Shown one piece after another: positions 105 to 9,180 of a stretch of 11,110 bases of DNA. The notes below the pieces were generated by a model, which searched no databases, was not told where the DNA came from, and worked only from the letters and a program-made list of their open reading frames with translations. This DNA comes from JBFLXN01 sp040755715 [NCBI: Candidatus Edwardsbacteria bacterium] (GTDB lineage: Bacteria; Edwardsbacteria; AC1; JBFLXN01). Each line of letters begins with the position of its first letter. Within the stretch, counting starts at the first letter, position 1. Position numbers and translations under genes: made by a program. The DNA is taken from contig JBFLXN010000086.1 of NCBI GenBank assembly GCA_040755715.1, forward strand, positions 1 to 11,110, given 5' to 3'.

Positions 105-144
105 CATTTTGCATATAACCATTAGTTTTTAGTTTTTGGCTTTT

Positions 145-172
145 GCCTCTTGTATCTTGCGTCTTACATCTT
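145..172 (-). repeat. 14-bp tandem repeat at the rbfA 3' end
   Basis: Read on the minus strand, AAGATGTAAGACGC (172-159) is followed directly by AAGATACAAGAGGC (158-145), two 14-bp units with 11 of 14 identical positions. A more degenerate A-rich third unit seems to follow. The first unit overlaps the rbfA stop codon by one base. It resembles the other short-period intergenic elements in this window. Confidence 0.5.
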
Positions 173-958: not shown

Positions 959-2153
959 CAAATACTTTCTTAATCCTCTCTACGGCCCAGTCAATTTCCT
1001 TTTTGGTAATTAATAATGGCGGGGCAAAGCGAATGACATCCTCGTGTGTCTCTTTACAGAGCAAACCTTGATTCATCAGGGCCTCGCAATATTTCCGGGC
1101 CCCTCCAGCTTCCTCTTTCAATTCCACACCAATGAGCAGTCCCTTACCCCTGATTTCTTTTATCAGAGGATTTCTAATTTCCCGAAGTCGTTCTAGGAAA
1201 TAGCCACCGAATCTATAAGCTTTTTCAGCCAATCTCTCTTCAATCAAGACTTGCAGGGACGCTAAAGCTACCGCACAGGCTAAGGGATTTCCACCAAAAG
1301 TACTACCGTGGTCCCCAGGCTTGAATACACTCAAAATTTCTGCTGAAGAGACTACGGCGGAAATCGGCAAGATTCCGCCACCGAGTGCCTTTCCCAAAAT
1401 ATACATATCTGGCTTGACTCCCTCATAGTCTAAGCAGAACATTTTTCCCGTCCGACCAAAACCGGTTTGAATCTCATCGGCAATCAAAAGAATCCCTTTT
1501 GAGATACATATATTTCGCACCTCTTTTAGATAACCTGTGGGAGGAATTCTTACCCCAGCCTCGCCTTGAATCGGTTCAACCAGAAATGCGACGGTATTGG
1601 GACTAATCGCTTTTTCCAGTGTCTCTGCATCCCCATAAGGAATTATCTTAAATCCCGGAGTCAAAGGACCAAATCCATTCTTGTATTGTTCTTCAGAAGA
1701 AAAACTAACAACAGTAATAGTGCGGCCGTGAAAATTGTCTTCACAAACAATAATTTCTGCCATATCCTTGGGAATTTTCTTCCTTTGATAGCCCCATTTT
1801 CTCGCTGTTTTAATTGCTGTCTCTACAGCCTCGGCACCTGTGTTCATTGGCAAGACCATTTCCATCTTGCACAATCGGGCCAACTTCTTCATAAATGGTC
1901 CCAGTTGGTCATTATAAAAGGCACGAGAAGTCAGAGTTATTCTTTCCGCTTGTTTCTTAAGCGCCGCCACAATCTTAGGATGGCGGTGCCCTTGATTCAC
2001 AGCGGAATAGGCGCTAAGCATATCTAGATATTTTTTACCTTCTACATCATAGACCCAGATGCCCTCTGCTCTGGAAATGACTACTGGTAGTGGTTTATAG
2101 TTGTGAGCCCCAAACTTTTCGGTAATCTCAATAATTGTCTTGGTAGTGGACAT
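954..2153 (-). CDS. rocD: ornithine aminotransferase (ornithine--oxo-acid transaminase)
   Basis: This is a PLP-dependent class III aminotransferase that moves the delta-amino group of ornithine to 2-oxoglutarate, giving glutamate 5-semialdehyde and glutamate. The 399-residue product has the usual length. [11 protein letters not shown] and [15 protein letters not shown] near residues 15-60 are typical of ornithine, rather than acetylornithine, aminotransferases. [10 protein letters not shown] (104-113) is a cofactor-phosphate region, D226 in [12 protein letters not shown] should contact the PLP ring nitrogen, and K255 in ILGKALGGG is the Schiff-base lysine. The ATG at 2153 is preferred because GGAGAG lies six bases upstream; a longer reading to 2228 runs through an intergenic repeat. 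It follows hutU by about 100 bp, suggesting co-transcription in amino-acid degradation to glutamate. ArgD or another class III enzyme is less likely. Confidence 0.93.
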
Positions 2154-2170
2154 AGATTTCTCTCCATAAA

Positions 2171-2247
2171 ATGCTAATACGCTTAGACGGTGAAACGCTG
2201 ATACGGGAAACTTCTTACTTATTAACATATCAGCATATCAACGAAAT
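2171..2247. repeat. degenerate palindromic element between hutU and rocD
   Basis: The 102-bp hutU-rocD spacer carries repeated units of the form GCTGATACG or GCTAATACG on the plus strand (2173-2206). An inverted set follows near the hutU stop: ACGCTGATACG at 2195-2205 matches the minus-strand ATGCTGATATG at 2238-2228 at 9 of 11 positions. The internal spacing is about ten bases. It would be transcribed between two genes that appear to form an operon. It codes for nothing recognisable; the open reading through it is an artefact of the rocD frame. Confidence 0.5.
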
Positions 2248-2255
2248 GTATGTCT

Positions 2256-3923
2256 CTATTTCTTGGCAGACATAATTCTCATTGGCAGTTGGACGCCTTT
2301 TTTCTTAGCAGTTTTGATGGCTTCCTCGTAGCCGGCATCTGCATGGCGGGCAATACCAATACCAGGGTCATTAGTCAAAACCCTTTGCAGTCTCTCTTCC
2401 ATCATTTTTGTTCCATCGGCAATAATTACTTGCCCTGCGTGGATAGAAAGTCCGATACCCACGCCTCCACCGTGATGCACAGAGACCCAAGAGGCTCCAG
2501 AAGCCGTATTTAGCAAGGCATTAAGGATTGGCCAATCGGCAATCGCCTCAGAGCCATCCCTCATTCCTTCAGTCTCACGATTAGGAGAGGCTACCGACCC
2601 TGTATCCAGATGGTCTCTACCAATCACGATTGGTGCCTTGATTTTCTTCTTCTTCACTAATTGATTGATGGCTATTCCAAACTTATCTCTCTCTCCCAAC
2701 CCTAACCAACAAATTCTGGCGGGCAATCCCTGAAATCTCACCTTCTGTTCAGCCATTCTAATCCAGCGGATTAAAGATTTGTCTTTAGGAAAAAGTTTTA
2801 GAACTTCTTCATCCGTGGTATAAATATCCTTCGGGTCTCCAGAGAGTGCTACCCAGCGGAAAGGTCCTTTACCTTCGCAAAATAGCGGTCTAATGTACTC
2901 TGAAACAAACCCTGGAATATCAAAAGCATTTTCCACTCCAACTTTTTTTGCCTGTCCTCTAATATTATTGCCGTAGTCAAAGGCGACCGCCCCCTTCTTT
3001 TGCATTTCTAACATCGCTCTCATTTGAGTAGCCATTGATTCATAGGAGCGCTTAATATATTCTTCGGGATTGTTTCTCCGCAATTCCATTGCTTTTTCAA
3101 ATGGTATCTCTCCAGGTACATAACCATTAAGTTCGTCATGAGCAGAAGTCTGGTCAGTGAGGACATCAGGAATAATACCTCGCCTTACTAATTCTGGATG
3201 GATTTCTGAAGCATTGCCTACTAGACCTACAGAGAGAGAAGTATCCTTTTTCACCGCAGAATCTACCAATTGCAGGGCTTTATCAAGATTTGTCTCCATC
3301 AGATTACAAAAACCCATTTCTACTCTCCGTTTAATTCTCGCTGGGTCTACTTCCACATCAAGAATAACTCCCTCATTCATTGTTACCGCTAAGGGCTGAG
3401 CTCCACTCATTCCACCCATTCCTGCGGTTAAGACAAATTTTCCTTTAAGAGAACCGTTGAAGTGTTTTCTAGCGCAAGCAGCTAAAGTTTCATAAGTTCC
3501 TTGCAAAATTCCTTGTGTGCCGATATAAATCCAACTGCCGGCTGTCATTTGGCCGTACATAATCAAACCTAAAGCCTCAAGTTTGCGGAAATAATCCCAA
3601 TTAGCCCAGGCCGGCACAAGTAGAGAATTGGCAATTAACACTCTCGGGGCATATTCAAAAGTTCTAAAAATCCCAACCGGTTTCCCTGATTGAATTAGAA
3701 GTGTTTCATCATTTTCCAATTTCTTTAGAGCGCCAACAATTGCCTTATAGCAGTCCCAGTTTCTTGCCGCTTTACCAGATCCACCATAAATAATTAATTC
3801 CTCAGGCTTTTCGGCTACTTCAGCATCTAAGTTATTCATTAACATTCTCATCGCCGCTTCTTGTGCCCAACCTTTGCAGGAAATTTTTGTGCCTCTGGAC
3901 GCTTTGATATTTCTCTTTTGCAT
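2256..3923 (-). CDS. hutU: urocanate hydratase (urocanase)
   Basis: HutU is the second enzyme of histidine degradation: it hydrates urocanate to 4-imidazolone-5-propionate using tightly bound NAD+. The 555-residue product matches the family's usual length of about 555-560 and is conserved throughout. Visible landmarks are [11 protein letters not shown] (46-56), [19 protein letters not shown] (125-143), the NAD-binding [10 protein letters not shown] (168-177), TDQTSAHD (257-264), [11 protein letters not shown] (315-325), C405 in [10 protein letters not shown] (equivalent to the conserved active-site cysteine) and HHGGGVGIG (483-491). Position 173 is serine where I expect glycine in most urocanases. 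The ATG at 3923 has AGGAGG five bases upstream; an ATG nine codons earlier adds a basic tail and lacks such a site. No hutH, hutI or hutG lies in the window, so the rest of the pathway would be elsewhere. Confidence 0.97.
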
Positions 3924-3951
3924 TCTCTTCCTCCTGCCAATTGCCATCAAG

Positions 3952-4068
3952 GAAAATCCTTCAAACCACTGAATACACTGAATACACAGAAAAATAAGAT
4001 CTTCTTTATCTTTGGATTAAAAAACTCTTCAGTGATTTCAGTGTCCTCAGTGGTTTATACTTTCCTAT
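3952..4068. repeat. palindromic intergenic element upstream of hutU
   Basis: The arms at 3963-3993 and 4026-4056 are imperfect inverted repeats of about 31 bases, beginning AAACCACTGA on one side and ending TCAGTGGTTT on the other. Within each arm CACTGAA-type units recur every nine to ten bases. The element is bounded by GCCATCAAG (3943-3951) and GCTATCAAG (4069-4077), a direct repeat with one mismatch that could be a target-site duplication. It sits between the hutU ribosome-binding site and its likely promoter, so it would form a large hairpin in the hutU leader. Confidence 0.65.
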
Positions 4069-4077
4069 GCTATCAAG
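4054..4077. repeat. 24-bp repeat, copy 2
   Basis: This stretch matches 935-958 at 21 of 24 positions in the same orientation. It begins in the right arm of the palindrome ending at 4056 and ends with GCTATCAAG, so it may be the outer boundary of that dispersed element. Confidence 0.5.
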
Positions 4078-4108
4078 ATAACCCTCACTTCGTTCGGGTT
4101 TGATTTTA

Positions 4109-4207
4109 GTAGCCACAGATTACCCTCGTTAGAAATTCTCCACCACTATTCAGAAGGCTATATCTTCTGTCTAGTTATTTCTAACGGGGCGAGTTACGCA
4201 ACTGCTA
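4109..4207. repeat. nested palindrome in the hutU/DUF4389 intergenic region
   Basis: CGTTAGAAAT (4127-4136) pairs perfectly with ATTTCTAACG (4177-4186). Inside it CAGAAG (4151-4156) pairs with CTTCTG (4164-4169) around a seven-base loop, and outside it GTAGC (4109-4113) faces GCTAC (4203-4207). The result is a three-tier hairpin of about 100 bp. It lies downstream of a likely leftward promoter and could form a structured leader in the hutU transcript, or be a small non-autonomous mobile element. I cannot assign it to a known riboswitch class. Confidence 0.55.
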
Positions 4208-4244
4208 CCATTTAATCCAGCCAAAAATCTTACAGTGCAGTTAT

Positions 4245-4274
4245 AGTTTAAGTTAACAAGGCGAAAAAAGTCAA
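4245..4274 (-). promoter_or_regulatory. candidate leftward promoter for hutU
   Basis: On the minus strand TTGACT (4269-4274) is followed after 18 bases by TAAACT (4245-4250); an alternative -10, TATAAC (4240-4245), is a better box but at 23 bases is too far. The -10 is weaker than that of the opposing promoter. If used, the hutU leader would be about 310 bases and contain both palindromes of this gap. Confidence 0.35.
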
Positions 4275-4308
4275 GGAAATTTTTCAAAAATATATCTTGA
4301 CTTTTTTC
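4263..4308. promoter_or_regulatory. 13-bp inverted repeat spanning both divergent -35 boxes
   Basis: GAAAAAAGTCAAG (4263-4275) and CTTGACTTTTTTC (4296-4308) are perfect inverted copies separated by 20 bases. Each arm contains a TTGACT hexamer reading outward. The symmetry suggests an operator for a dimeric regulator that could control both directions, or simply duplicated promoter elements. No regulator gene is adjacent. Confidence 0.5.
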
Positions 4309-4326
4309 CTTATTGTATGCTATAAT
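4297..4326 (+). promoter_or_regulatory. sigma70-type promoter for the DUF4389 gene
   Basis: TTGACT (4297-4302), an 18-base spacer and a perfect TATAAT (4321-4326). The -10 is preceded by TGC, giving an extended -10 (TGCTATAAT). Transcription would start near 4333, leaving a leader of about 50 bases before the DUF4389 ATG at 4383. This is one of the two strongest rightward promoters in the window. Confidence 0.75.
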
Positions 4327-4382
4327 TTGTTTAATTACAAAAGAAACCCTAAACATTACACAGAGAGAGGAGGTGAGAAAAG

Positions 4383-4682
4383 ATGCCACATCCAGCAAAA
4401 TTCTCGATTGACTATCCGGAGAAACTCTCCCGTGGAATTCTCATCTTGCGATTGCTCTTTGGTTGGCTTTATGTCGGAATTCCTCACGGAGTCTGTCTCG
4501 CTCTTTACTCCATTGCTTCATCCATCGTTACTTTTATCGCTTGGTGGGCGGTGTTGTTCACCGGCAAATATCCCAAAGGAATGTTTGACTTCAATGTTGG
4601 TTTGTATCGGTGGATGATGCGTGTTTATGCCTATATGTCTTTTATGACAGACGCCTACCCCCCATTCAGTGGTAAAGAGTAA
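4383..4682 (+). CDS. DUF4389 domain membrane protein
   Basis: A 99-residue protein with the DUF4389 pattern: YPEKLSRGILILRLLFGWLY near residues 11-30, IPHGVCLALYSIAS, a second hydrophobic stretch IVTFIAWWAVLFTG (about 48-61), then KYPKGMFDFNVGLYRWMMRV and the closing YMSFMTDAYPPFS. These invariant-looking blocks are typical of the family, whose function is unknown. Two membrane segments (about 17-41 and 45-60) are evident. The ATG is preceded by GAGGAGG at good spacing, and a strong promoter lies 57 bp upstream. The downstream DUF4013 gene also encodes a small polytopic membrane protein, so both may act together in the inner membrane, but that is inference from position only. Confidence 0.88.
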   Translation: MPHPAKFSIDYPEKLSRGILILRLLFGWLYVGIPHGVCLALYSIASSIVTFIAWWAVLFTGKYPKGMFDFNVGLYRWMMRVYAYMSFMTDAYPPFSGKE

Positions 4683-4692
4683 GAGAACATTA

Positions 4693-4720
4693 GGGGTGAG
4701 AGAGAAACTTCTCTCACCCC
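4693..4720 (+). other. strong hairpin after the DUF4389 gene
   Basis: GGGGTGAGAGA (4693-4703) and TCTCTCACCCC (4710-4720) form a perfect 11-bp stem with a six-base loop, 10 bp after the stop codon. No T-run follows, so it is not a canonical intrinsic terminator. It may stabilise the DUF4389 transcript end or partly terminate before the DUF4013 gene. A small CAAAG/CTTTG hairpin follows at 4722-4734. Confidence 0.6.
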
Positions 4721-4742
4721 CCAAAGAATCTTTGACTTTTGA

Positions 4743-4810
4743 CCATGAAGGCACGAAAACTAGGAAAATACGAAATTTTTGGGTATCTTTTTCCTTTCGT
4801 GTTTTCGTGG
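4743..4810. repeat. palindromic element with CACGAAA units
   Basis: CCATGAAGGCACGAAAAC begins the left arm at 4743 and the right arm ends TTTCGTGTTTTCGTGG at 4810. The arms are imperfect inverted repeats of about 23-26 bases. CACGAAA units recur inside each arm at about nine to ten base spacing, the same architecture as the element upstream of hutU but with a different core. It occupies the gap between the DUF4389 and DUF4013 genes. Confidence 0.6.
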
Positions 4811-4850
4811 TAATACTTATCATCAATTCAACTTATTAAGGAGCAGAAAA

Positions 4851-5435
4851 ATGAATTTCGGTAGAGCGTTTTCTTTTATGTTTGAAGACAGAGAGGCTCT
4901 CAGAAAAATCCTGGTAGGTGGTTTCTTTACCTTATTGAGCTATTTAGTTATCGGTATACCTTTCGTGTTCGGCTATCTCTTAGAGTTAATGAAGGATAAT
5001 ATAGAAGGCAAAGAAACTCCTTTACCCGAATGGGACCAATTAGGTGAAAAGTTTGTCAAGGGTTTAGTTTTTTTGTTGATTGTAATTATTTATATCATGC
5101 CCGCTATTATCGTCAATGTCATCCCCTGTCTGGGTCAACTTCTATCATTTATTTATGGAATTGCTCTCTGGTTGGCTTTTCCCTATATTATGGGAAGATT
5201 TGCTCTCAGCGGGAAATTCACTGAAGCCTTTCAATTTGATGAAATCATTGAATTTGTGAAAAAGAATATAGAAAATCTTATCTTGGCTCTGGTGATGAGT
5301 ATAGTAATTTCTATCATTTCAGCCTTTGGTATTATTCTCTTGATGGTTGGCGTTTTATTTACTACATTTTGGGCTGGCTTGGGCTGTACCCACCTTTATG
5401 CTCAAGTTTTCAGAGCAGCCAAAGAAAAATCTTAG
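4851..5435 (+). CDS. DUF4013 domain membrane protein
   Basis: A 194-residue, very hydrophobic protein that fits DUF4013: an amphipathic start with an F-DR-A--KIL pattern, a first membrane segment (about residues 21-45), a short polar loop containing LPEWDQLGEKFVKG (about 57-70), then membrane segments near 70-90, 92-125 and 145-185. The aromatic cluster ALWLAFPYIMGRFA and the late FGIILLMVGVLFTTFWAG are family-like. Its function is unknown. The ATG at 4851 has AAGGAG eight bases upstream; a longer frame from 4779 runs through the CACGAAA palindrome and is rejected. A good intrinsic terminator follows 35 bp after the stop. With the upstream DUF4389 gene it forms a likely two-gene unit. Confidence 0.85.
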   Translation: MNFGRAFSFMFEDREALRKILVGGFFTLLSYLVIGIPFVFGYLLELMKDNIEGKETPLPEWDQLGEKFVKGLVFLLIVIIYIMPAIIVNVIPCLGQLLSFIYGIALWLAFPYIMGRFALSGKFTEAFQFDEIIEFVKKNIENLILALVMSIVISIISAFGIILLMVGVLFTTFWAGLGCTHLYAQVFRAAKEKS

Positions 5436-5470
5436 AGCAAAAAATGATGGAAGTTTCTAATTTTTAACAA

Positions 5471-5507
5471 AAAGGCAGCTATTTCAGAGTGATAGCGGCC
5501 TTTTTTT
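5471..5507 (+). terminator. intrinsic terminator of the DUF4389-DUF4013 unit
   Basis: AAAGGCAGCTAT (5471-5482) pairs with ATAGCGGCCTTT (5492-5503) with one mismatch across a nine-base loop, followed by a run of seven T residues (5501-5507). Stem and T-run have the classical Rho-independent form and lie 35 bp after the DUF4013 stop. Confidence 0.85.
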
Positions 5508-5533
5508 GCCGCCTAGGAATTTGAATAATGTCT

Positions 5534-5596
5534 TGATTACGCAGATAAAACCGATTCGCCAATCTGTGTAAGCTTGTTTAAAAATCTGCGTAATCA
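5534..5596. repeat. palindromic element with TGATTACGCAGAT arms
   Basis: TGATTACGCAGAT (5534-5546) and ATCTGCGTAATCA (5584-5596) are perfect 13-bp inverted repeats. A third, direct copy of the right arm's core, AATCTGTGTAA (5561-5571), lies inside. The design matches the other short-period palindromes in the window but the core differs. It lies in the long gap between the DUF4013 gene and mtaB. Confidence 0.65.
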
Positions 5597-5603
5597 TATT
5601 CTG

Positions 5604-5709
5604 ACCTGTCCGTTGTTTCCCTGGCCGTCCTGACCGTTAGCTCCGCATCTTGAGACAACGGACAGGTTGTAGCGACTTCAGAGAAGAACGGGCAGGCAAG
5701 ATGCAGAGC
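5604..5709. repeat. GC-richer patch with two overlapping inverted repeats
   Basis: ACCTGTCCGTTGT (5604-5616) and ACAACGGACAGGT (5655-5667) are perfect 13-bp inverted repeats. GCTCCGCATCTTG (5640-5652) is matched inversely by CAAGATGCAGAGC (5697-5709) with one mismatch. The two stems interlock, so the RNA could form a pseudoknot or switch between forms. The patch is clearly GC-richer than neighbouring genes, suggesting an acquired element. I recognise no known RNA class or coding content. Confidence 0.55.
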
Positions 5710-5734
5710 CCTCGGTCGTAACCCTTTGAGCATA

Positions 5735-5772
5735 GCCTCTCAGCCGTCCCGATTTATCGGGACGAGCGAGGC
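5735..5772. repeat. hairpin GTCCCGAT/ATCGGGAC upstream of mtaB
   Basis: GTCCCGAT (5746-5753) and ATCGGGAC (5756-5763) form a perfect 8-bp stem with a two-base loop, extended by GCCTC (5735-5739) and GAGGC (5768-5772). It sits 56 bp before the mtaB ATG. Shorter CCCGAT...ATC-GGG motifs recur near 7024 and 7170. It may be a hairpin in the mtaB leader or part of the preceding GC-richer element. Confidence 0.5.
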
Positions 5773-5827
5773 CAACGGGCGAGACGACGGTCAGGAACGA
5801 AGTGAGGAATATCTTGGGGAGTTCTCA

Positions 5828-7129
5828 ATGTCTCAGGTTTCTTTTATTACTTTTGGTTGTAAAGTTAATCAATATGACACTCAGAGTCTGAGAGAGATTT
5901 TTTGTCGGGCTGGTTATTCTATTGTCCCAGTGGAAAAAGACCCAGAGATTTGCGTGATTAATACTTGTGCGGTAACTCAGGTAGCAGAACAACAAGCAAG
6001 ACAGGCAATTCATAAAATTTCCCGAAAAAACCCTAAACCCTACATTATTGTTACTGGATGTTATGCCCAGATTAATCCCGAACGAATTGGCCAAATTGAT
6101 GAAGTAGACCTTGTTCTCGGATTGCCTGAAGAGAATAAAATTATTGAACTTCTTGAAGAGAAGAACTTATCCCGAGTCAGAGTCACCCCAATTCATCAAA
6201 TAGTAGATTTTACAGAGTCTCCGGTTTGCGGACACTTCCAACACACTCGAGCATTCCTGAAAATTCAGGATGGTTGTGATGCCTTTTGCTCCTATTGTAT
6301 TGTGCCCTATACTCGAGGAAAATCACGTCGCCGGGCACTAAACCAAATTATTGATGAGGCAAAACGATTGACTGAAGCAGGTTTTCAGGAGATTGTATTG
6401 ACTGGAGTCCATCTGGAAGGCGAACACTTGTTACAAGTAATCCCTCATTTAGAAGAAATAAAAAAACTCCATCGCCTTCGTTTGAGTTCGTTAGAAGTAA
6501 ATGAATTTAGCCCTGAATTGATTGAATTGATTAAGAAATCTCATAAAATATGTCATCACTTGCATATTCCACTTCAAAGCGGAAGCGAAAATGTCTTACA
6601 AAAAATGAATCGCCCTTACACCCCGGAAAGATATAGGAGACTTGTTAATCAACTAATAGCGGAAATCCCTGATTTGGCTGTGGGCACAGACATTATGGTG
6701 GGTTTTCCTGGAGAAACCGAAGACGATTTTAGTTCCACTTATAAACTCATTGAGGAAGTACCATTTGCTTATCTACACATCTTCAATTATTCCCTTCGTA
6801 AAGGTACTTTAGCCGCCTCTTTTAAAGAGACGGTACCATCAGAAACGAAAGCCCGAAGAAGTAAAACTCTCCGAATTCTGACAATTGAAAAAAAGAAGAG
6901 TTATCTCAGCAGATTTTTGGGAAAAGAAATAGAAGTTATCATTGAATCAAAAAGAGACAAGCAAAATGGATGCTTGACAGGAATTTCAGGAAATTATCTC
7001 AAAATATTTATTGTCGGTAGAGCCCGATCTATCGGGGAAGGTGCTGATGAATTCAAAGATAAATTAGCCAGAATAAGTATAGAGAAAATATCGGATGGAC
7101 AATTGTTCGGCAGTTTTACTGATTTTTAA
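5828..7129 (+). CDS. mtaB: tRNA (N6-L-threonylcarbamoyladenosine37-C2)-methylthiotransferase MtaB
   Basis: A radical-SAM methylthiotransferase that adds a methylthio group to t6A37 of ANN-decoding tRNAs, giving ms2t6A. The 433-residue product has the three family parts: an N-terminal UPF0004 domain with cysteines C11 (FITFGCKVNQYDTQ), C47 (INTCAVT) and C78 (VTGCYAQ) that hold the auxiliary iron-sulfur cluster; a radical-SAM domain with C150, C154 and C157 in CDAFCSYCIVPYTRG; and a C-terminal TRAM-like segment (from about 370). GCKVNQYDTQ and the RGKSRRR stretch separate MtaB/YqeV from MiaB. The ATG at 5828 has GGGGAG just upstream; the in-frame extension to 5726 runs through GC-rich intergenic hairpins and is rejected. 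The next gene is its paralogue miaB. Confidence 0.93.
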   Translation: MSQVSFITFGCKVNQYDTQSLREIFCRAGYSIVPVEKDPEICVINTCAVTQVAEQQARQAIHKISRKNPKPYIIVTGCYAQINPERIGQIDEVDLVLGLPEENKIIELLEEKNLSRVRVTPIHQIVDFTESPVCGHFQHTRAFLKIQDGCDAFCSYCIVPYTRGKSRRRALNQIIDEAKRLTEAGFQEIVLTGVHLEGEHLLQVIPHLEEIKKLHRLRLSSLEVNEFSPELIELIKKSHKICHHLHIPLQSGSENVLQKMNRPYTPERYRRLVNQLIAEIPDLAVGTDIMVGFPGETEDDFSSTYKLIEEVPFAYLHIFNYSLRKGTLAASFKETVPSETKARRSKTLRILTIEKKKSYLSRFLGKEIEVIIESKRDKQNGCLTGISGNYLKIFIVGRARSIGEGADEFKDKLARISIEKISDGQLFGSFTDF

Positions 7130-7130
7130 C

Positions 7131-7159
7131 TTGCATTTTAGCATGAGCTGTGATATTAT
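7131..7159 (+). promoter_or_regulatory. candidate promoter for miaB
   Basis: TTGCAT (7131-7136), 17 bases, then TATTAT (7154-7159) preceded by TGA, making an extended -10. The -35 matches consensus at only three positions. It starts two bases after the mtaB stop and would give miaB a leader of about 120 bases that contains the palindrome at 7195-7267. Confidence 0.4.
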
Positions 7160-7194
7160 TTTATAGTATCCCGATTTTATCAGGGTCCTGATTT

Positions 7195-7267
7195 CAGCGA
7201 TAAAAAGAACGATGATAACGAGGCAAAAGTTAAAGTTTCATCGTGGTAATCTTGGTTTTTATCGCTG
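7195..7267. repeat. palindromic element between mtaB and miaB
   Basis: CAGCGATAAAAA (7195-7206) and TTTTTATCGCTG (7256-7267) are perfect 12-bp inverted repeats. Inside, ACGATGA-like units on the left face CATCGTGG on the right, giving a longer imperfect pairing. The element ends 17 bp before the miaB ATG, so its hairpin would lie close to the ribosome-binding region. Confidence 0.65.
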
Positions 7268-7284
7268 TAATTGTTGTTTTGATT

Positions 7285-8595
7285 ATGAAAAAATTTTATG
7301 TCCAGACTTTCGGCTGCCAGATGAATGTCTATGATTCTGAATTGATGAAGGGGCTTCTTTCTGTCGAAGGTTATTTGCCCGCTCAAACAATCAAAGAAGC
7401 AGATATTATTCTTTTAAACACCTGTGCTATTCGCCAGCACGCCGAAGAAAGAGTCTTTGGACGATTGCGAGAACTAAAAAAACTAAAAGAAGAAAAACCT
7501 GAAATTATCTTAGGAATTTGCGGCTGTATCGCCCAGGAGCAGAGAGAAAAACTGTTTGATGATTTTCCTTTCATTAATTTGATTGTTGGCACCAAAGCTT
7601 ATAGACGACTTCCCCAAATAATTGAAAAATATAATTCTGACCATCTTCCCCAGTTGGAAATAAGCGATGAAGAAACTTTTGCCACCAGAGTGATACCTCA
7701 AGCCCCACTTTCTGCTCTCGTCGCCATTATGGAAGGCTGCAGTAATTACTGTGCCTATTGTATTGTGCCTTATGTCAGAGGTGTTGAAAAGTCAAGAAGG
7801 TGTCAGGAAATCTTAGAAGAGATTTCGCATTTAGCCGGAAAAGGAACAAAAGAAGTAATGCTTATCGGACAAAATGTCAATTCTTATAGAGATAGAGAAA
7901 TAGGATTCAGCCAACTTTTGCCAGAAGTAGAAAAAGTAGCAAAAATTGAGCGCGTTCGTTTCACCACTTCACACCCACGAGATATTGACGAAGATTTGTT
8001 GAAGGTTATATCTAATTCAAAAAAAATTTGTGAGCATTTGCATTTGCCGCTTCAAACAGGTTCAAACCGCATTTTAAAGGCAATGAATCGTGGATATTCC
8101 TTTGAAAAATATCACCAGATAGTTGAGCGAATTCGTGAATTGATTCCTGACCCGAGTATCACCACTGACCTGATTGTTGGTTTCCCCGGTGAAACCGAGA
8201 AGGATTTCCAAGAAACACTGATGGCAGTTCAAAAAATTCAATTTGACTCGGCTTATACCTTCAAATTTTCACCAAAGATAGGAACAAAAGCGGCAGAAAT
8301 GTCAAATCAAATTTCTGAGGAGGATAAACAGCGACGCTTGCAAGAATTAATTGCGGTTCAAGAGGAAATTACTAAAAAGAAAAATCAAGAGATGATTGGC
8401 AAAACGGTAGAAGTTTTGGTTGAAGGAGAAAGTCGCAGGGGAAATGGTCAGTTCAAAGGCAGAACCAGAACTAATAAGACAGTGGTTTTTCATCCTGTAG
8501 AAAAAAATGATTTAATCCGAAAGCTTTTGATGGTTAAGATAGAAGAAGCTGGTAGCCATACTCTATTTGGGACAAGTCAACGACCCCCACCCTAA
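7285..8595 (+). CDS. miaB: tRNA-2-methylthio-N6-dimethylallyladenosine synthase MiaB
   Basis: MiaB is the radical-SAM methylthiotransferase that converts i6A37 to ms2i6A37 in tRNAs reading UNN codons. The 436-residue product has the family's normal length. The N-terminal domain carries C11 (YVQTFGCQMNVYDSE), C47 (LLNTCAIR) and C81 (GICGCIAQ); the radical-SAM domain has C152, C156 and C159 in GCSNYCAYCIVPYVRG; a TRAM domain with RGNGQFKGRTRTNKTVVF closes the protein. FGCQMN and GQNVNSYRD are MiaB-type signatures. I chose the ATG at 7285, where the family N-terminus starts, although it has no clear Shine-Dalgarno sequence. A GTG at 7243 adds a hydrophobic tail translated from the upstream palindrome and is unlikely. 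miaA is not in the window. Confidence 0.95.
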   Translation: MKKFYVQTFGCQMNVYDSELMKGLLSVEGYLPAQTIKEADIILLNTCAIRQHAEERVFGRLRELKKLKEEKPEIILGICGCIAQEQREKLFDDFPFINLIVGTKAYRRLPQIIEKYNSDHLPQLEISDEETFATRVIPQAPLSALVAIMEGCSNYCAYCIVPYVRGVEKSRRCQEILEEISHLAGKGTKEVMLIGQNVNSYRDREIGFSQLLPEVEKVAKIERVRFTTSHPRDIDEDLLKVISNSKKICEHLHLPLQTGSNRILKAMNRGYSFEKYHQIVERIRELIPDPSITTDLIVGFPGETEKDFQETLMAVQKIQFDSAYTFKFSPKIGTKAAEMSNQISEEDKQRRLQELIAVQEEITKKKNQEMIGKTVEVLVEGESRRGNGQFKGRTRTNKTVVFHPVEKNDLIRKLLMVKIEEAGSHTLFGTSQRPPP

Positions 8596-8719
8596 AGAGG
8601 CTGTGTCATAATCCGCATTTTTGTCATTGTGAGCAATAGCGAAGCAATCTCAAATCCTTATAAAATGAAAGATTGCTTCGTCGCTACGCTCCTCGCAATG
8701 ACATTGCGACACAGCCTCT
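8596..8719. mobile_element. MITE-like 124-bp palindrome with 12-bp terminal inverted repeats
   Basis: AGAGGCTGTGTC (8596-8607) and GACACAGCCTCT (8708-8719) are perfect terminal inverted repeats. The inner arms, 8623-8650 and 8670-8702, are long imperfect inverted repeats with the familiar GTCATTGCGAGGA...GACGAAGCAATCT core that recurs between genes in many bacterial genomes. It encodes nothing. The left end abuts the miaB stop codon directly. No clear target-site duplication is visible. A decayed relative of the core lies at 10394-10439. Confidence 0.8.
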
Positions 8720-8844
8720 GAAGGCTGAGGCATTTTAGGACGGTGGTAACTTATCAGAATTGAAAAATTAAATAATTTCAAATGAACTCCAAAACTTCTC
8801 AACTCTTACACTTCTTACCTGAAAAAAGAGGAGGTTATTAAAAA

Positions 8845-9180
8845 ATGTGGATTTTAAGATTACTCGGTTCGTTATTGCTCATCATTGCTTTGACTATTAT
8901 CGTTTTACAAAACATTAAGGAAGATGTTACGGTCACGGTATTCAGTTGGCAATTTGTCAATAAACCACTGCCGCTTGTTATTCTGCTCAGTATTGCTCTC
9001 GGGATGGTGGTAACTTTTTTCATTAATATTTTCCATGAATTGTCTTTGCGGCGAAGAATCTGGGCACAGAAAAAGAAGATAGACAATTTGACCGTTGAAC
9101 TTACTGCCCTGCGTAATTTGCCTTTAGCAGAAGCAGAAGAAAAAAGTTCTGAAAAAGAAGAAACTAAAAAAGGAGAATAA
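8845..9180 (+). CDS. lapA: LapA domain-containing inner-membrane protein
   Basis: A 111-residue LapA/DUF1049 protein. It has two membrane segments, about residues 4-22 (starting ILRLLGSLLLII) and 41-64 (starting LPLVILLSIALGMV), with the typical short periplasmic loop VLQN--EDVTVTVFSWQF between them. A cytoplasmic coiled coil (about 68-90) and a Glu/Lys-rich tail follow. In Escherichia coli LapA partners LapB in the inner membrane for lipopolysaccharide assembly. GAGGAGG lies ten bases before the ATG. lapB starts five bases after the stop and its ribosome-binding site overlaps the lapA end, so the two are translationally linked. The pairing, more than the short sequence alone, supports the name. 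Confidence 0.87.
   Translation: MWILRLLGSLLLIIALTIIVLQNIKEDVTVTVFSWQFVNKPLPLVILLSIALGMVVTFFINIFHELSLRRRIWAQKKKIDNLTVELTALRNLPLAEAEEKSSEKEETKKGE

What the first reader, a model, noticed from the sequence alone, without database searches (positions are those of the whole stretch)
2160..8719. Most gaps hold a different imperfect palindrome, several with a short internal period
Cores differ (GCTGATACG, CACTGAA, CACGAAA, GATTACGCAGAT, CGATAAAAA, GCGAGGAGCG) but the layout is similar: 60-125 bp, inverted arms, and in several cases units repeated about every ten bases. The near-helical period raises the possibility of a common DNA-binding or replication-slippage mechanism rather than independent mobile elements. 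This is the closest thing here to an undescribed system.
Basis: partly seen in the sequence, partly recalled or inferred. Interest (0 to 1): 0.6.

Follow-up and report, generated by a model that had tools for sequence, protein, structure and literature searches.

The report
Mobile elements with protein-matched repeat arms
At least one and probably several of these odd palindromes are gene-less copies of a widespread, apparently undescribed kind of tiny bacterial mobile element, whose two ends are built from short repeats whose length (7-8 or 8-10 letters) depends on the small protein that the full-length version encodes.

Summary
The observation largely holds: each of the six gaps between genes from 2150 to 8850 has an imperfect palindrome (weak in P1), and cores differ. 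The period is 8 or 9, not ten, significant only for P1 and P2. The window's genome is not held, so its copies could not be counted.

P2 (3963-4056) has two convergent arms of three CACNGA units at 9-nt steps (17/17 positions; shuffles reach 15). Elsewhere such arms lie 69-261 bp apart without a gene, or 428-524 bp apart around a GxxExxY (PD-(D/E)XK) gene; one 368-bp pair has none. A second small protein, four-helix-bundle/S23, sits between arms of 7-8-nt units. Significant periods: GxxExxY 9, 10 or 8; four-helix 7 or 8; 4 of 128 stray. Period follows the protein tree.

Mobility: near-identical elements in unrelated flanks; five near-identical gene-less copies in one genome; one Nostoc site seen empty, full and gene-less. 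No target duplication was seen.

The four-helix branch probably explains cyanobacterial heptamer repeats. P1 and P3 probably, P4 and P6 possibly, are GxxExxY-type; P2b, P5 and P7 look like other repeats. How the elements move is inferred.

The parts
3963..4056 (.). P2: gene-less GxxExxY-type element, 94 bp, upstream of hutU (2256-3923, - strand)
   Evidence: inverted arms 83% complementary; arms 3965-3990 (+) and 4029-4054 (-) score 17/17 on the CRCNRA x3 model, no score above 15 in 100 shuffled windows; fold z -4.49; 9-nt period 0 of 500 shuffles
3963..3991 (+). P2 left arm: AAACCAC TGAATA CAC TGAATA CAC AGAA, three CACNGA units at 9 nt
4028..4056 (-). P2 right arm (inverted): AAACCAC TGAGGA CAC TGAAAT CAC TGAA, three CACNGA units at 9 nt
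4742..4811 (.). P3: probable GxxExxY-type element with 8-nt units (CACGAAAA), between the small frames 4383-4682 and 4851-5435
   Evidence: convergent arm scores 14 (+) and 15 (-) of 17 at period 8 (shuffled windows give 14 about once and 15 0.08 times); period 30 of 500 shuffles; fold z -4.54
2170..2245 (.). P1: probable member with 8-nt units (CGCTGATA), between the ornithine aminotransferase and hutU genes
   Evidence: period 8, 0 of 500 shuffles; arm model only 13/17, a chance level; weak fold z -1.31
5534..5596 (.). P4: possible member (TGATTACGCAGATTT arms, two units only)
   Evidence: fold z -4.68; no significant period (402 of 500); assignment rests on resemblance to CACAGATT/CGCGAATT units in GxxExxY arms
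7189..7273 (.). P6: possible member (CGATAAAAA / CACGATGAA), between mtaB and miaB
   Evidence: fold z -4.54; 9-nt period 63 of 500
4109..4208 (.). P2b: different kind, palindrome with GTAG at one end and CTAC at the other (REP-like)
   Evidence: fold z -4.29; no tandem period; GTAG read directly
5604..5717 (.). P5: overlapping inverted repeats, different kind
   Evidence: pairs I6 and I9; fold z -1.82
8596..8722 (.). P7: long palindrome with TTGCGAGGAGCGTAGCGACGAAGCAATC core (written on the - strand), different kind (REP-like)
   Evidence: pair I3; fold z -7.19; no tandem period
122..172 (-). heptamer array (AAGATGT AAGACGC AAGATAC AAGAGGC AAAAGCC AAAAACT AAAAACT, units read by eye), like one arm of a four-helix-type element
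   Evidence: 7-nt run at 122-148; stretch 112-178: 3 of 500 shuffles as good

Best explanation
P2 (and probably P1 and P3, possibly P4 and P6) are gene-less, MITE-like copies of a small mobile element. SHOWN in other genomes: the full element is a single ~115-aa GxxExxY gene (Pfam PDDEXK_3) between two convergent arms, each of three CRCNRA units 8, 9 or 10 nt apart; short copies keep the arms and lack the gene; a parallel family has a four-helix-bundle/S23 gene between arms of 7- or 8-nt units. INFERRED: the encoded protein binds its own arms as an oligomer that counts units, which would explain why unit length follows the protein family and is mostly equal in both arms; the paired arms (as cruciform or as hairpin in single-stranded DNA or RNA) mark the ends of the unit; the GxxExxY nuclease, or for the four-helix type a partner enzyme in trans, cuts or copies the unit into a new site that is sealed without a target duplication; gene-less copies are moved in trans. 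In the window the elements would be passive passengers between genes.
For: (1) Starting from the arm pattern alone: found in 54 of 199 genomes of one phylum; the control (pattern read backwards) gives 6 matches in 5 genomes. In loci L101-L170 plus the window, neighbouring arms within 700 bp are convergent 21 times, divergent 4, same strand 9. Ten gene-less convergent pairs span 69-261 bp (P2: 90). Of eleven longer pairs nine hold a GxxExxY gene; a tenth, L104, was not in the gene scan and is the same place as the GxxExxY gene of L164; one of 368 bp has none. (2) Starting from the gene: left and right flanks align as inverted arms better than 60 shuffles in 24 of 30 GxxExxY and 20 of 29 four-helix loci. 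CRCNRA arms at >=15/17 on both sides in the right orientation in 50 of 100 GxxExxY loci (71 with at least one) and 0 of 98 four-helix loci; periods equal in 49 of those 50. (3) Significant flank periods: GxxExxY 48 of 100 (9: 30, 10: 9, 8: 7, 5: 1, 12: 1); four-helix 80 of 98 (7: 65, 8: 13, 11: 1, 12: 1); control positions 4 of 95. (4) Unit length follows the protein tree: four-helix 8 changes vs 12.3 expected (0 of 2000 shuffles), GxxExxY 10 vs 14.8 (1 of 2000). (5) Mobility: L314/L327 97.5% identical over 444 bp with unrelated flanks; 7 of 16 pairs compared are alike only over the element. Complete genome G042: five matches spanning the L203 four-helix element (itself included) plus five near-identical 174-bp copies with the gene region gone. 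One Nostoc site: empty (two C057 plasmids), full (C052, N. edaphicum), gene-less (ATCC 53789); a Nostoc nrd site and a Bacteroides radA site are empty in relatives. (6) Conserved E, D, E-x-K and Q in all 25 aligned GxxExxY proteins, read by me as the nuclease site.
Against: No protein-arm contact, cutting or movement was observed. No catalytic site is known to me in the four-helix protein, so one mechanism for both needs an unknown partner. Within-genome copies are mostly as diverse as copies of different genomes (median protein identity 46% vs 46% for GxxExxY, 26 same-genome pairs; 40% vs 39% for four-helix, 18 pairs), so bursts are rare and much of the spread may be horizontal. About half of the GxxExxY loci have no significant period. 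Among 8 named plasmid GxxExxY loci only Bacteroides finegoldii passes every test; Bernardetia, Prevotella and Persicobacter pass one; four pass none. The arm model was written after looking at some of the same loci. Periods of the two arms differ in 3 of 21 pattern-first pairs. P4 and P6 fail the period test. Clean empty sites were not found for the two G042 copies tried.
Confidence: 0.75

Rival explanations
1. Independent hairpins: each palindrome is an ordinary mRNA-end hairpin, terminator or stabiliser that arose where it stands, with no mobile element behind it.
For: They lie in gaps; several fold strongly; cores differ.
Against: The P2 arm pattern recurs in 54 of 199 genomes of one phylum, mostly in convergent pairs where pairs were read, and encloses a specific gene in the long size class. 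P2, P3 and P4 lack a T-run after the stem (read by eye; the terminator scan was not run) and P2 lies upstream of a gene start.
Confidence: 0.1
2. REP elements moved by RAYT (Y1) transposases.
For: P2b begins GTAG and ends CTAC; P7 resembles REP-type palindromes; REPs are described in several phyla, Planctomycetes included (PMC3733652: part 1 of 8 and passages read).
Against: P1-P4 and P6 have no GTAG or CGTC end that I could see, are longer than 20-40 bp, and arms like those of P2 enclose GxxExxY genes elsewhere. RAYT genes were not searched for.
Confidence: 0.1
3. Replication slippage plus template switching: short tandem tracts arise by slippage, are copied inverted, and small genes happen to sit between them.
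For: Tandem units with changing copy number, best seen in heptamer arms.
Against: Two gene families each with their own unit lengths; equal period in both arms while the letters differ (49 of 50; 18 of 21); unit length tracks the protein tree; presence/absence of the whole unit at one site.
Confidence: 0.05
4. The arms act mainly in RNA: the stem is cut by RNase III so that insertions into transcribed regions are tolerated, as for 23S rRNA intervening sequences; movement is by reverse transcription or rare recombination.
For: The three four-helix proteins scanned match Pfam 23S_rRNA_IVP and, below the curated cut-off, bAvd; the Coxiella intervening sequence is a 428-nt element ending in a 28-bp stem cut by RNase III (PMC4990558, abstract and passages).
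Against: No RNA data here; arms of one element are often only partly complementary; it does not explain unit length by itself.
Confidence: 0.3

Closest known systems
23S rRNA intervening sequences (IVS) with S23/23S_rRNA_IVP proteins
   Same: Small element, inverted ends, one four-helix-bundle gene; the four-helix branch described here carries the same protein family
   Different: Known IVS sit in rRNA genes; those looked at here sit between protein genes, have gene-less copies and arms of counted 7-8-nt units. P2 itself belongs to the GxxExxY branch, for which I found no IVS counterpart
Short tandemly repeated repetitive (STRR) heptamers of cyanobacteria; GGGAATC heptamers of Xanthomonas; TAACTGA heptamers of Beggiatoaceae
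   Same: 7-nt tandem units in gaps; 70 and 75 convergent pairs in two Xanthomonas genomes (PMC4692102, passages). Ten of ten cyanobacterial plasmid four-helix genes examined lie beside 7-nt arrays
   Different: The passages I read give no carrier: TAACTGA repeats, 'no mechanism is evident' (PMC4679880, abstract and passages); Xanthomonas and Nostoc repeats generally not found with mobile elements. The same paper found only a few paired GGGGA(C/T)T repeats in Nostoc PCC 7120 and none on its plasmids. The link to the four-helix gene is made here, and not yet tested for these exact repeats
MITEs and their parent insertion sequences
   Same: Gene-less copies with inverted ends beside gene-bearing copies
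   Different: The encoded proteins match no transposase family in Pfam (6 proteins); arms are counted repeats; no target duplication seen by eye at three sites
REP/BIME elements with RAYT transposases
   Same: Intergenic palindromes, several types per genome
   Different: No GTAG/CGTC tag seen on P1-P4; a different encoded protein
BrickBuilt MITE of Porphyromonas gingivalis
   Same: Tandem repeats inside an inverted-repeat element (PMC4596501, abstract)
   Different: 23-nt repeats, described from P. gingivalis strains; neither gene family is mentioned in the abstract

Membership tests
GxxExxY-type arm element (defined here) | two convergent arms of three CRCNRA units, first one ACCRC | tested here: met
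   P2 17/17 and 17/17; P3 14 and 15, weaker; P1 only 13, a chance level
GxxExxY-type arm element (defined here) | equal unit spacing of 8-10 nt in both arms | tested here: met
   P2 at 9 nt and P1 at 8 nt, both arms summed, 0 of 500 shuffles; P3 suggestive only (30 of 500)
GxxExxY-type arm element (defined here) | P4 and P6 show the same period | tested here: not met
   402 and 63 of 500 shuffles as good; they are not filed as members
GxxExxY-type arm element (defined here) | gene-bearing parent in the same genome | not testable with these tools
   no genome held; no GxxExxY gene in the window
MITE of a classical insertion sequence | target-site duplication | tested here: not met
   three filled/empty comparisons of relatives show no duplication by eye, within the limits of diverged flanks; the window's own site has no empty relative
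REP (GTAG or CGTC) with RAYT | GTAG or CGTC at one end of the palindrome | tested here: not met
   read by eye for P1-P4 and P6; met for P2b (GTAG...CTAC)
REP (GTAG or CGTC) with RAYT | RAYT gene in the genome | not tested
   no search was made
23S rRNA IVS | encodes S23/23S_rRNA_IVP protein | tested here: not met
   P2 encodes nothing and its gene-bearing relatives encode GxxExxY; met for the heptamer-armed elements of other genomes (3 of 3 proteins scanned)
23S rRNA IVS | located in a 23S rRNA gene | tested here: not met
   no Rfam match in the window
Described Rfam RNA family | match at gathering score | tested here: not met
   0 matches

The most novel reading that the evidence does not exclude
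A new class of mobile DNA in bacteria: element ends are counted arrays in which unit length, more than letter sequence, is the recognition code read by the encoded protein. Two apparently unrelated small proteins (a PD-(D/E)XK nuclease and a four-helix bundle related to the Avd proteins of diversity-generating retroelements) have converged on or share this scheme and one hidden mobilising machine, and the heptamer repeats long known in cyanobacteria, Xanthomonas and Beggiatoaceae are their gene-less offspring.
Probability: 0.4. Interest if true: 0.93.

Novelty: new variant of a known kind. Interest (0 to 1): 0.8.

Why it matters
GxxExxY and four-helix-bundle genes are common and of unknown role: 93 and 106 of 149 genomes of one phylum. 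Tying them to arms of fixed unit length gives both families a likely role (mobile elements), gives intergenic 7-10-nt repeats a source, and makes an old question (where cyanobacterial heptamer repeats come from and how they spread) directly testable. It also warns annotators that such palindromes beside a gene need not regulate it.

Tried and rejected
Led nowhere or rejected: the window's own genome (none held); placing the window by MiaB (best relative 43-45% identity, no near kin); P2 against 25 genomes by BLAST (mostly chance matches, though L081 and L095 hold arm-like stretches by eye); Rfam; single-sequence structure prediction of a GxxExxY protein (mean pLDDT 37.7, not used); PDB search with GxxExxY (one match at E 0.43), while the four-helix profile matches 2gsc and 2rld; clean empty sites for two G042 copies (in relatives the flanking genes match on separate contigs) and for G152 versus G149 (a further reading frame differs too); P7 in phages (two records, 34 bases each); four-helix gene in phages (none at E 1e-8). 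The helical ten-base idea was dropped: best periods are 7, 8 and 9, with 10 in a minority of GxxExxY loci. GxxExxY in 8 named plasmids: period significant at 9 nt in Bacteroides finegoldii, Persicobacter and Prevotella nigrescens; inverted flanks significant in B. finegoldii and Bernardetia (Prevotella 5 of 100 shuffles as good, Persicobacter 77); Treponema, Gemmatirosa, Fusobacteria ZRK30 and Sphingomonas show neither, apart from one Gemmatirosa side at 15/17. Two distant four-helix genes in L030 and L031 were not tested for arms.

Not in print, as far as searched: (open-licence PubMed Central only). GxxExxY occurs in 2 papers; one was read in a passage, the other seen only in the listing.
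Full report
What was checked. The window is 11,110 bases, 39.5% G+C. Best-supported genes: rbfA, ornithine aminotransferase, hutU (urocanate hydratase), mtaB and miaB above curated cut-offs; lapB-like and secretin-like frames below them; and small frames at 4383-4682, 4851-5435 and 8845-9180 without a match. No whole genome is held for it. A scan of genome contigs with the MiaB protein found no close relative (best 43-45% identity), so its lineage is unknown and its own copy numbers cannot be counted.

The palindromes are real. Eight of ten inverted pairs lie in gaps. As single-stranded DNA, six of eight tested stretches fold better than all 200 shuffles (z -4.3 to -7.2); P1 and P5 do not; six coding controls do not. 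The tandem period is 9 nt in P2 and 8 nt in P1 (0 of 500 shuffles each), suggestive in P3 (8 nt, 30 of 500), not significant in P6 (63 of 500) and absent in P4, P7 and P2b.

What P2 is. Its two arms are each three CACNGA units at 9-nt steps, the first one ACCAC, in convergent orientation. A 17-position model of this arm scores 17 on both; in 100 shuffled windows no score exceeds 15, and 15 comes up 0.08 times per window. The same pattern (up to one mismatch) occurs in 54 of 199 genomes drawn from the phylum of genome G002 (that phylum is not named by the tool); the pattern read backwards matches 6 times in 5 of the 199.

Two size classes. In loci L101-L170 plus the window, adjacent arms within 700 bp are convergent 21 times, divergent 4, same strand 9. 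Ten convergent pairs span 69-261 bp and hold no gene (P2 spans 90; three of the ten, and the window, were outside that profile scan, but the three are too short for the gene and the window was scanned). Of eleven longer ones nine hold a GxxExxY gene by profile; a tenth (L104) was outside the scan and is the same place as L164, where the gene is present; one (L168, 368 bp) has none. Periods of the two arms agree in 18 of 21.

Starting from the gene instead. GxxExxY (TIGR04256) occurs in 93 of 149 genomes of that phylum at E 1e-5 and in 40 of 99 Planctomycetota at E 1e-20 (phylum inferred from the record of G001). The four-helix-bundle family (TIGR02436) occurs in 106 of 149 at E 1e-5 and in 51 of 97 Omnitrophota at E 1e-20 (phylum inferred from G005). 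In the first 30 loci of each, the flanks align as inverted arms better than 60 shuffles in 24 of 30 GxxExxY and 20 of 29 four-helix loci (one dropped for a short flank). In 100 GxxExxY and 100 four-helix loci (those that the tool returned, plus the next 40 of each listing; two four-helix loci dropped for short flanks) I asked which tandem period best fits the two 150-bp flanks. Significant: GxxExxY 48 of 100, with 9 nt 30 times, 10 nt 9, 8 nt 7, 5 and 12 nt once each; four-helix 80 of 98, with 7 nt 65 times, 8 nt 13, 11 and 12 nt once each. Of 95 control positions 4 were significant. With the arm model, both sides in the right orientation score at least 15 in 50 of 100 GxxExxY loci and in 0 of 98 four-helix loci; wrong-orientation hits are 11 and 14 of 100 for GxxExxY and 1 and 0 of 98 for four-helix; the two periods are equal in 49 of 50. 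The model was drawn up after viewing some of these loci, so the four-helix set and the pattern-first set are the cleaner tests. A GxxExxY gene in a named Ignavibacteriae contig (L068), the only one in the 80 loci, shows 9-nt arms of the same kind by eye.

Unit length follows the protein. On protein trees the four-helix labels 7/8 (78 loci) need 8 changes (mean 12.3 in shuffles, 0 of 2000 as few) and the GxxExxY labels 8/9/10 (46 loci) need 10 (mean 14.8, 1 of 2000). This is what one expects if the protein reads the spacing; it is not proof of binding.

They move. Of 16 pairs of similar genes compared with their surroundings, 7 are alike only over the element (417-559 bp) and have unrelated flanks; the others are orthologous sites or mixed. 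In L314/L327 the shared unit runs from AGTTCACCACTGA to TCAGTGGTGAACT; one copy has a 26-bp palindrome inserted in an arm. In the complete genome G042 the element of L203 has five matches spanning the unit, itself included (whether all encode an intact protein was not checked), and several gene-less ones; five of these are near-identical 174-bp copies keeping both ends and lacking the gene, and they lie inside longer composites with other repeats. At one site in Nostoc plasmids the gap is empty in two plasmids of strain C057, holds a full four-helix element with GGGAACA arms in C052 and N. edaphicum, and a gene-less element with GGGAAC-type arms in ATCC 53789; the ribonucleotide-reductase site of N. 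edaphicum is empty in Calothrix NIES-4105, and the radA site of Bacteroides finegoldii (GxxExxY, arms 17/17 on both sides) is empty in Parabacteroides. I see no target duplication at these junctions; some bases of the empty Nostoc site are missing from the filled one, so insertion with loss is possible. Within one genome, copies are usually as different as between genomes, which points to frequent horizontal arrival.

Named organisms. Of 15 plasmid records with four-helix matches I examined 11: ten cyanobacterial loci best fit 7 nt (nine with 0 and one with 1 of 100 shuffles as good) and one Gemmatirosa locus 8 nt (0 of 100); the flanks align as inverted arms with at most 1 of 100 shuffles as good in 8 of the 11 (not in Calothrix 4105 and Nostoc HK-01; Gemmatirosa 3 of 100). 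Of 8 GxxExxY plasmid loci, three are significant at 9 nt (Bacteroides finegoldii, Persicobacter, Prevotella nigrescens) and two for inverted flanks (B. finegoldii, Bernardetia); only B. finegoldii passes every test and four pass none.

Mechanism. All 25 aligned GxxExxY proteins keep E, D, E-x-K and Q positions and three of three scanned match PDDEXK_3, so cutting is plausible. The four-helix protein is the Pfam 23S_rRNA_IVP family with a weak match to bAvd, a family named after the accessory protein of diversity-generating retroelements (recalled); it would need a partner. I commit to: protein reads arm spacing, paired arms define the unit, cutting or copying by the nuclease or a partner, gene-less copies moved in trans. 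Binding, cutting and the partner are inferred.

Compared with the known. Cyanobacterial STRR sequences are usually 7-bp repeats of unknown function that can form hairpins (PMC2670836, one passage). Heptamer arrays in Xanthomonas and Nostoc were studied in PMC4692102 (passages): 70 and 75 convergent pairs in two Xanthomonas genomes, only a few pairs in Nostoc PCC 7120 and none of its GGGGA(C/T)T repeats on plasmids, increased stability of repeat loci, and generally no association with mobile elements; the stability claim speaks against frequent movement there. The best solved relative of the four-helix profile is 2gsc, XCC0516; the name says Xanthomonas campestris to me (recalled). The Coxiella IVS is a 428-nt selfish element with an S23 gene and a stem cut by RNase III (PMC4990558, abstract and passages). 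TAACTGA heptamers of Beggiatoaceae have 'no mechanism evident', and the paper raises the possibility that a repeat-binding protein is the mobile part (PMC4679880, abstract and passages). None of these texts, as far as I read them, links the repeats to these genes. Most subscription journals and all preprints lie outside the library.

Other palindromes. P2b carries GTAG/CTAC ends and P7 is a long palindrome without tandem period; both fit REP-like repeats better than this family. P4 and P6 resemble the family by letters but fail the period test and are left open. So the finding is partly one system and partly a mixture.

Noticed in passing
window 122-172: Seven degenerate heptamers (AAGATGT AAGACGC ...), 7-nt period 3 of 500 shuffles; looks like one arm of a four-helix-type element beside rbfA.
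   Followed up: partly
80 loci L001-L080: Runs with 7-nt period are far above chance: 33 against 0 in shuffled sequence, many of them in Patescibacteria loci.
   Followed up: partly
L314 right arm; L117 near 1600: Short G+C-rich palindromes (CCTGCCTGACTGCGTCGGCAGGCAGG and a relative) are inserted inside arms of GxxExxY-type elements; perhaps a still smaller kind of mobile palindrome.
   Followed up: no
L440 and L449: A four-helix gene with 7-nt arrays lies between cas6 and cas4 on plasmids of Pseudanabaena galeata and Anabaena sp. 90.
   Followed up: no
L409 against L423 and L425: The genes that flank a gene-less element composite in G042 match separate contigs in the relative G056, so the element may mark a rearrangement.
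   Followed up: partly
L161: A 258-bp gene-less element is present twice in the same orientation, 358 bp apart.
   Followed up: no
window 4263-4335: A-T-rich inverted repeat (pair I5) overlapping a promoter-like TTGACT ... TATAAT upstream of the frame 4383-4682, read by eye; the promoter scan was not run.
   Followed up: no
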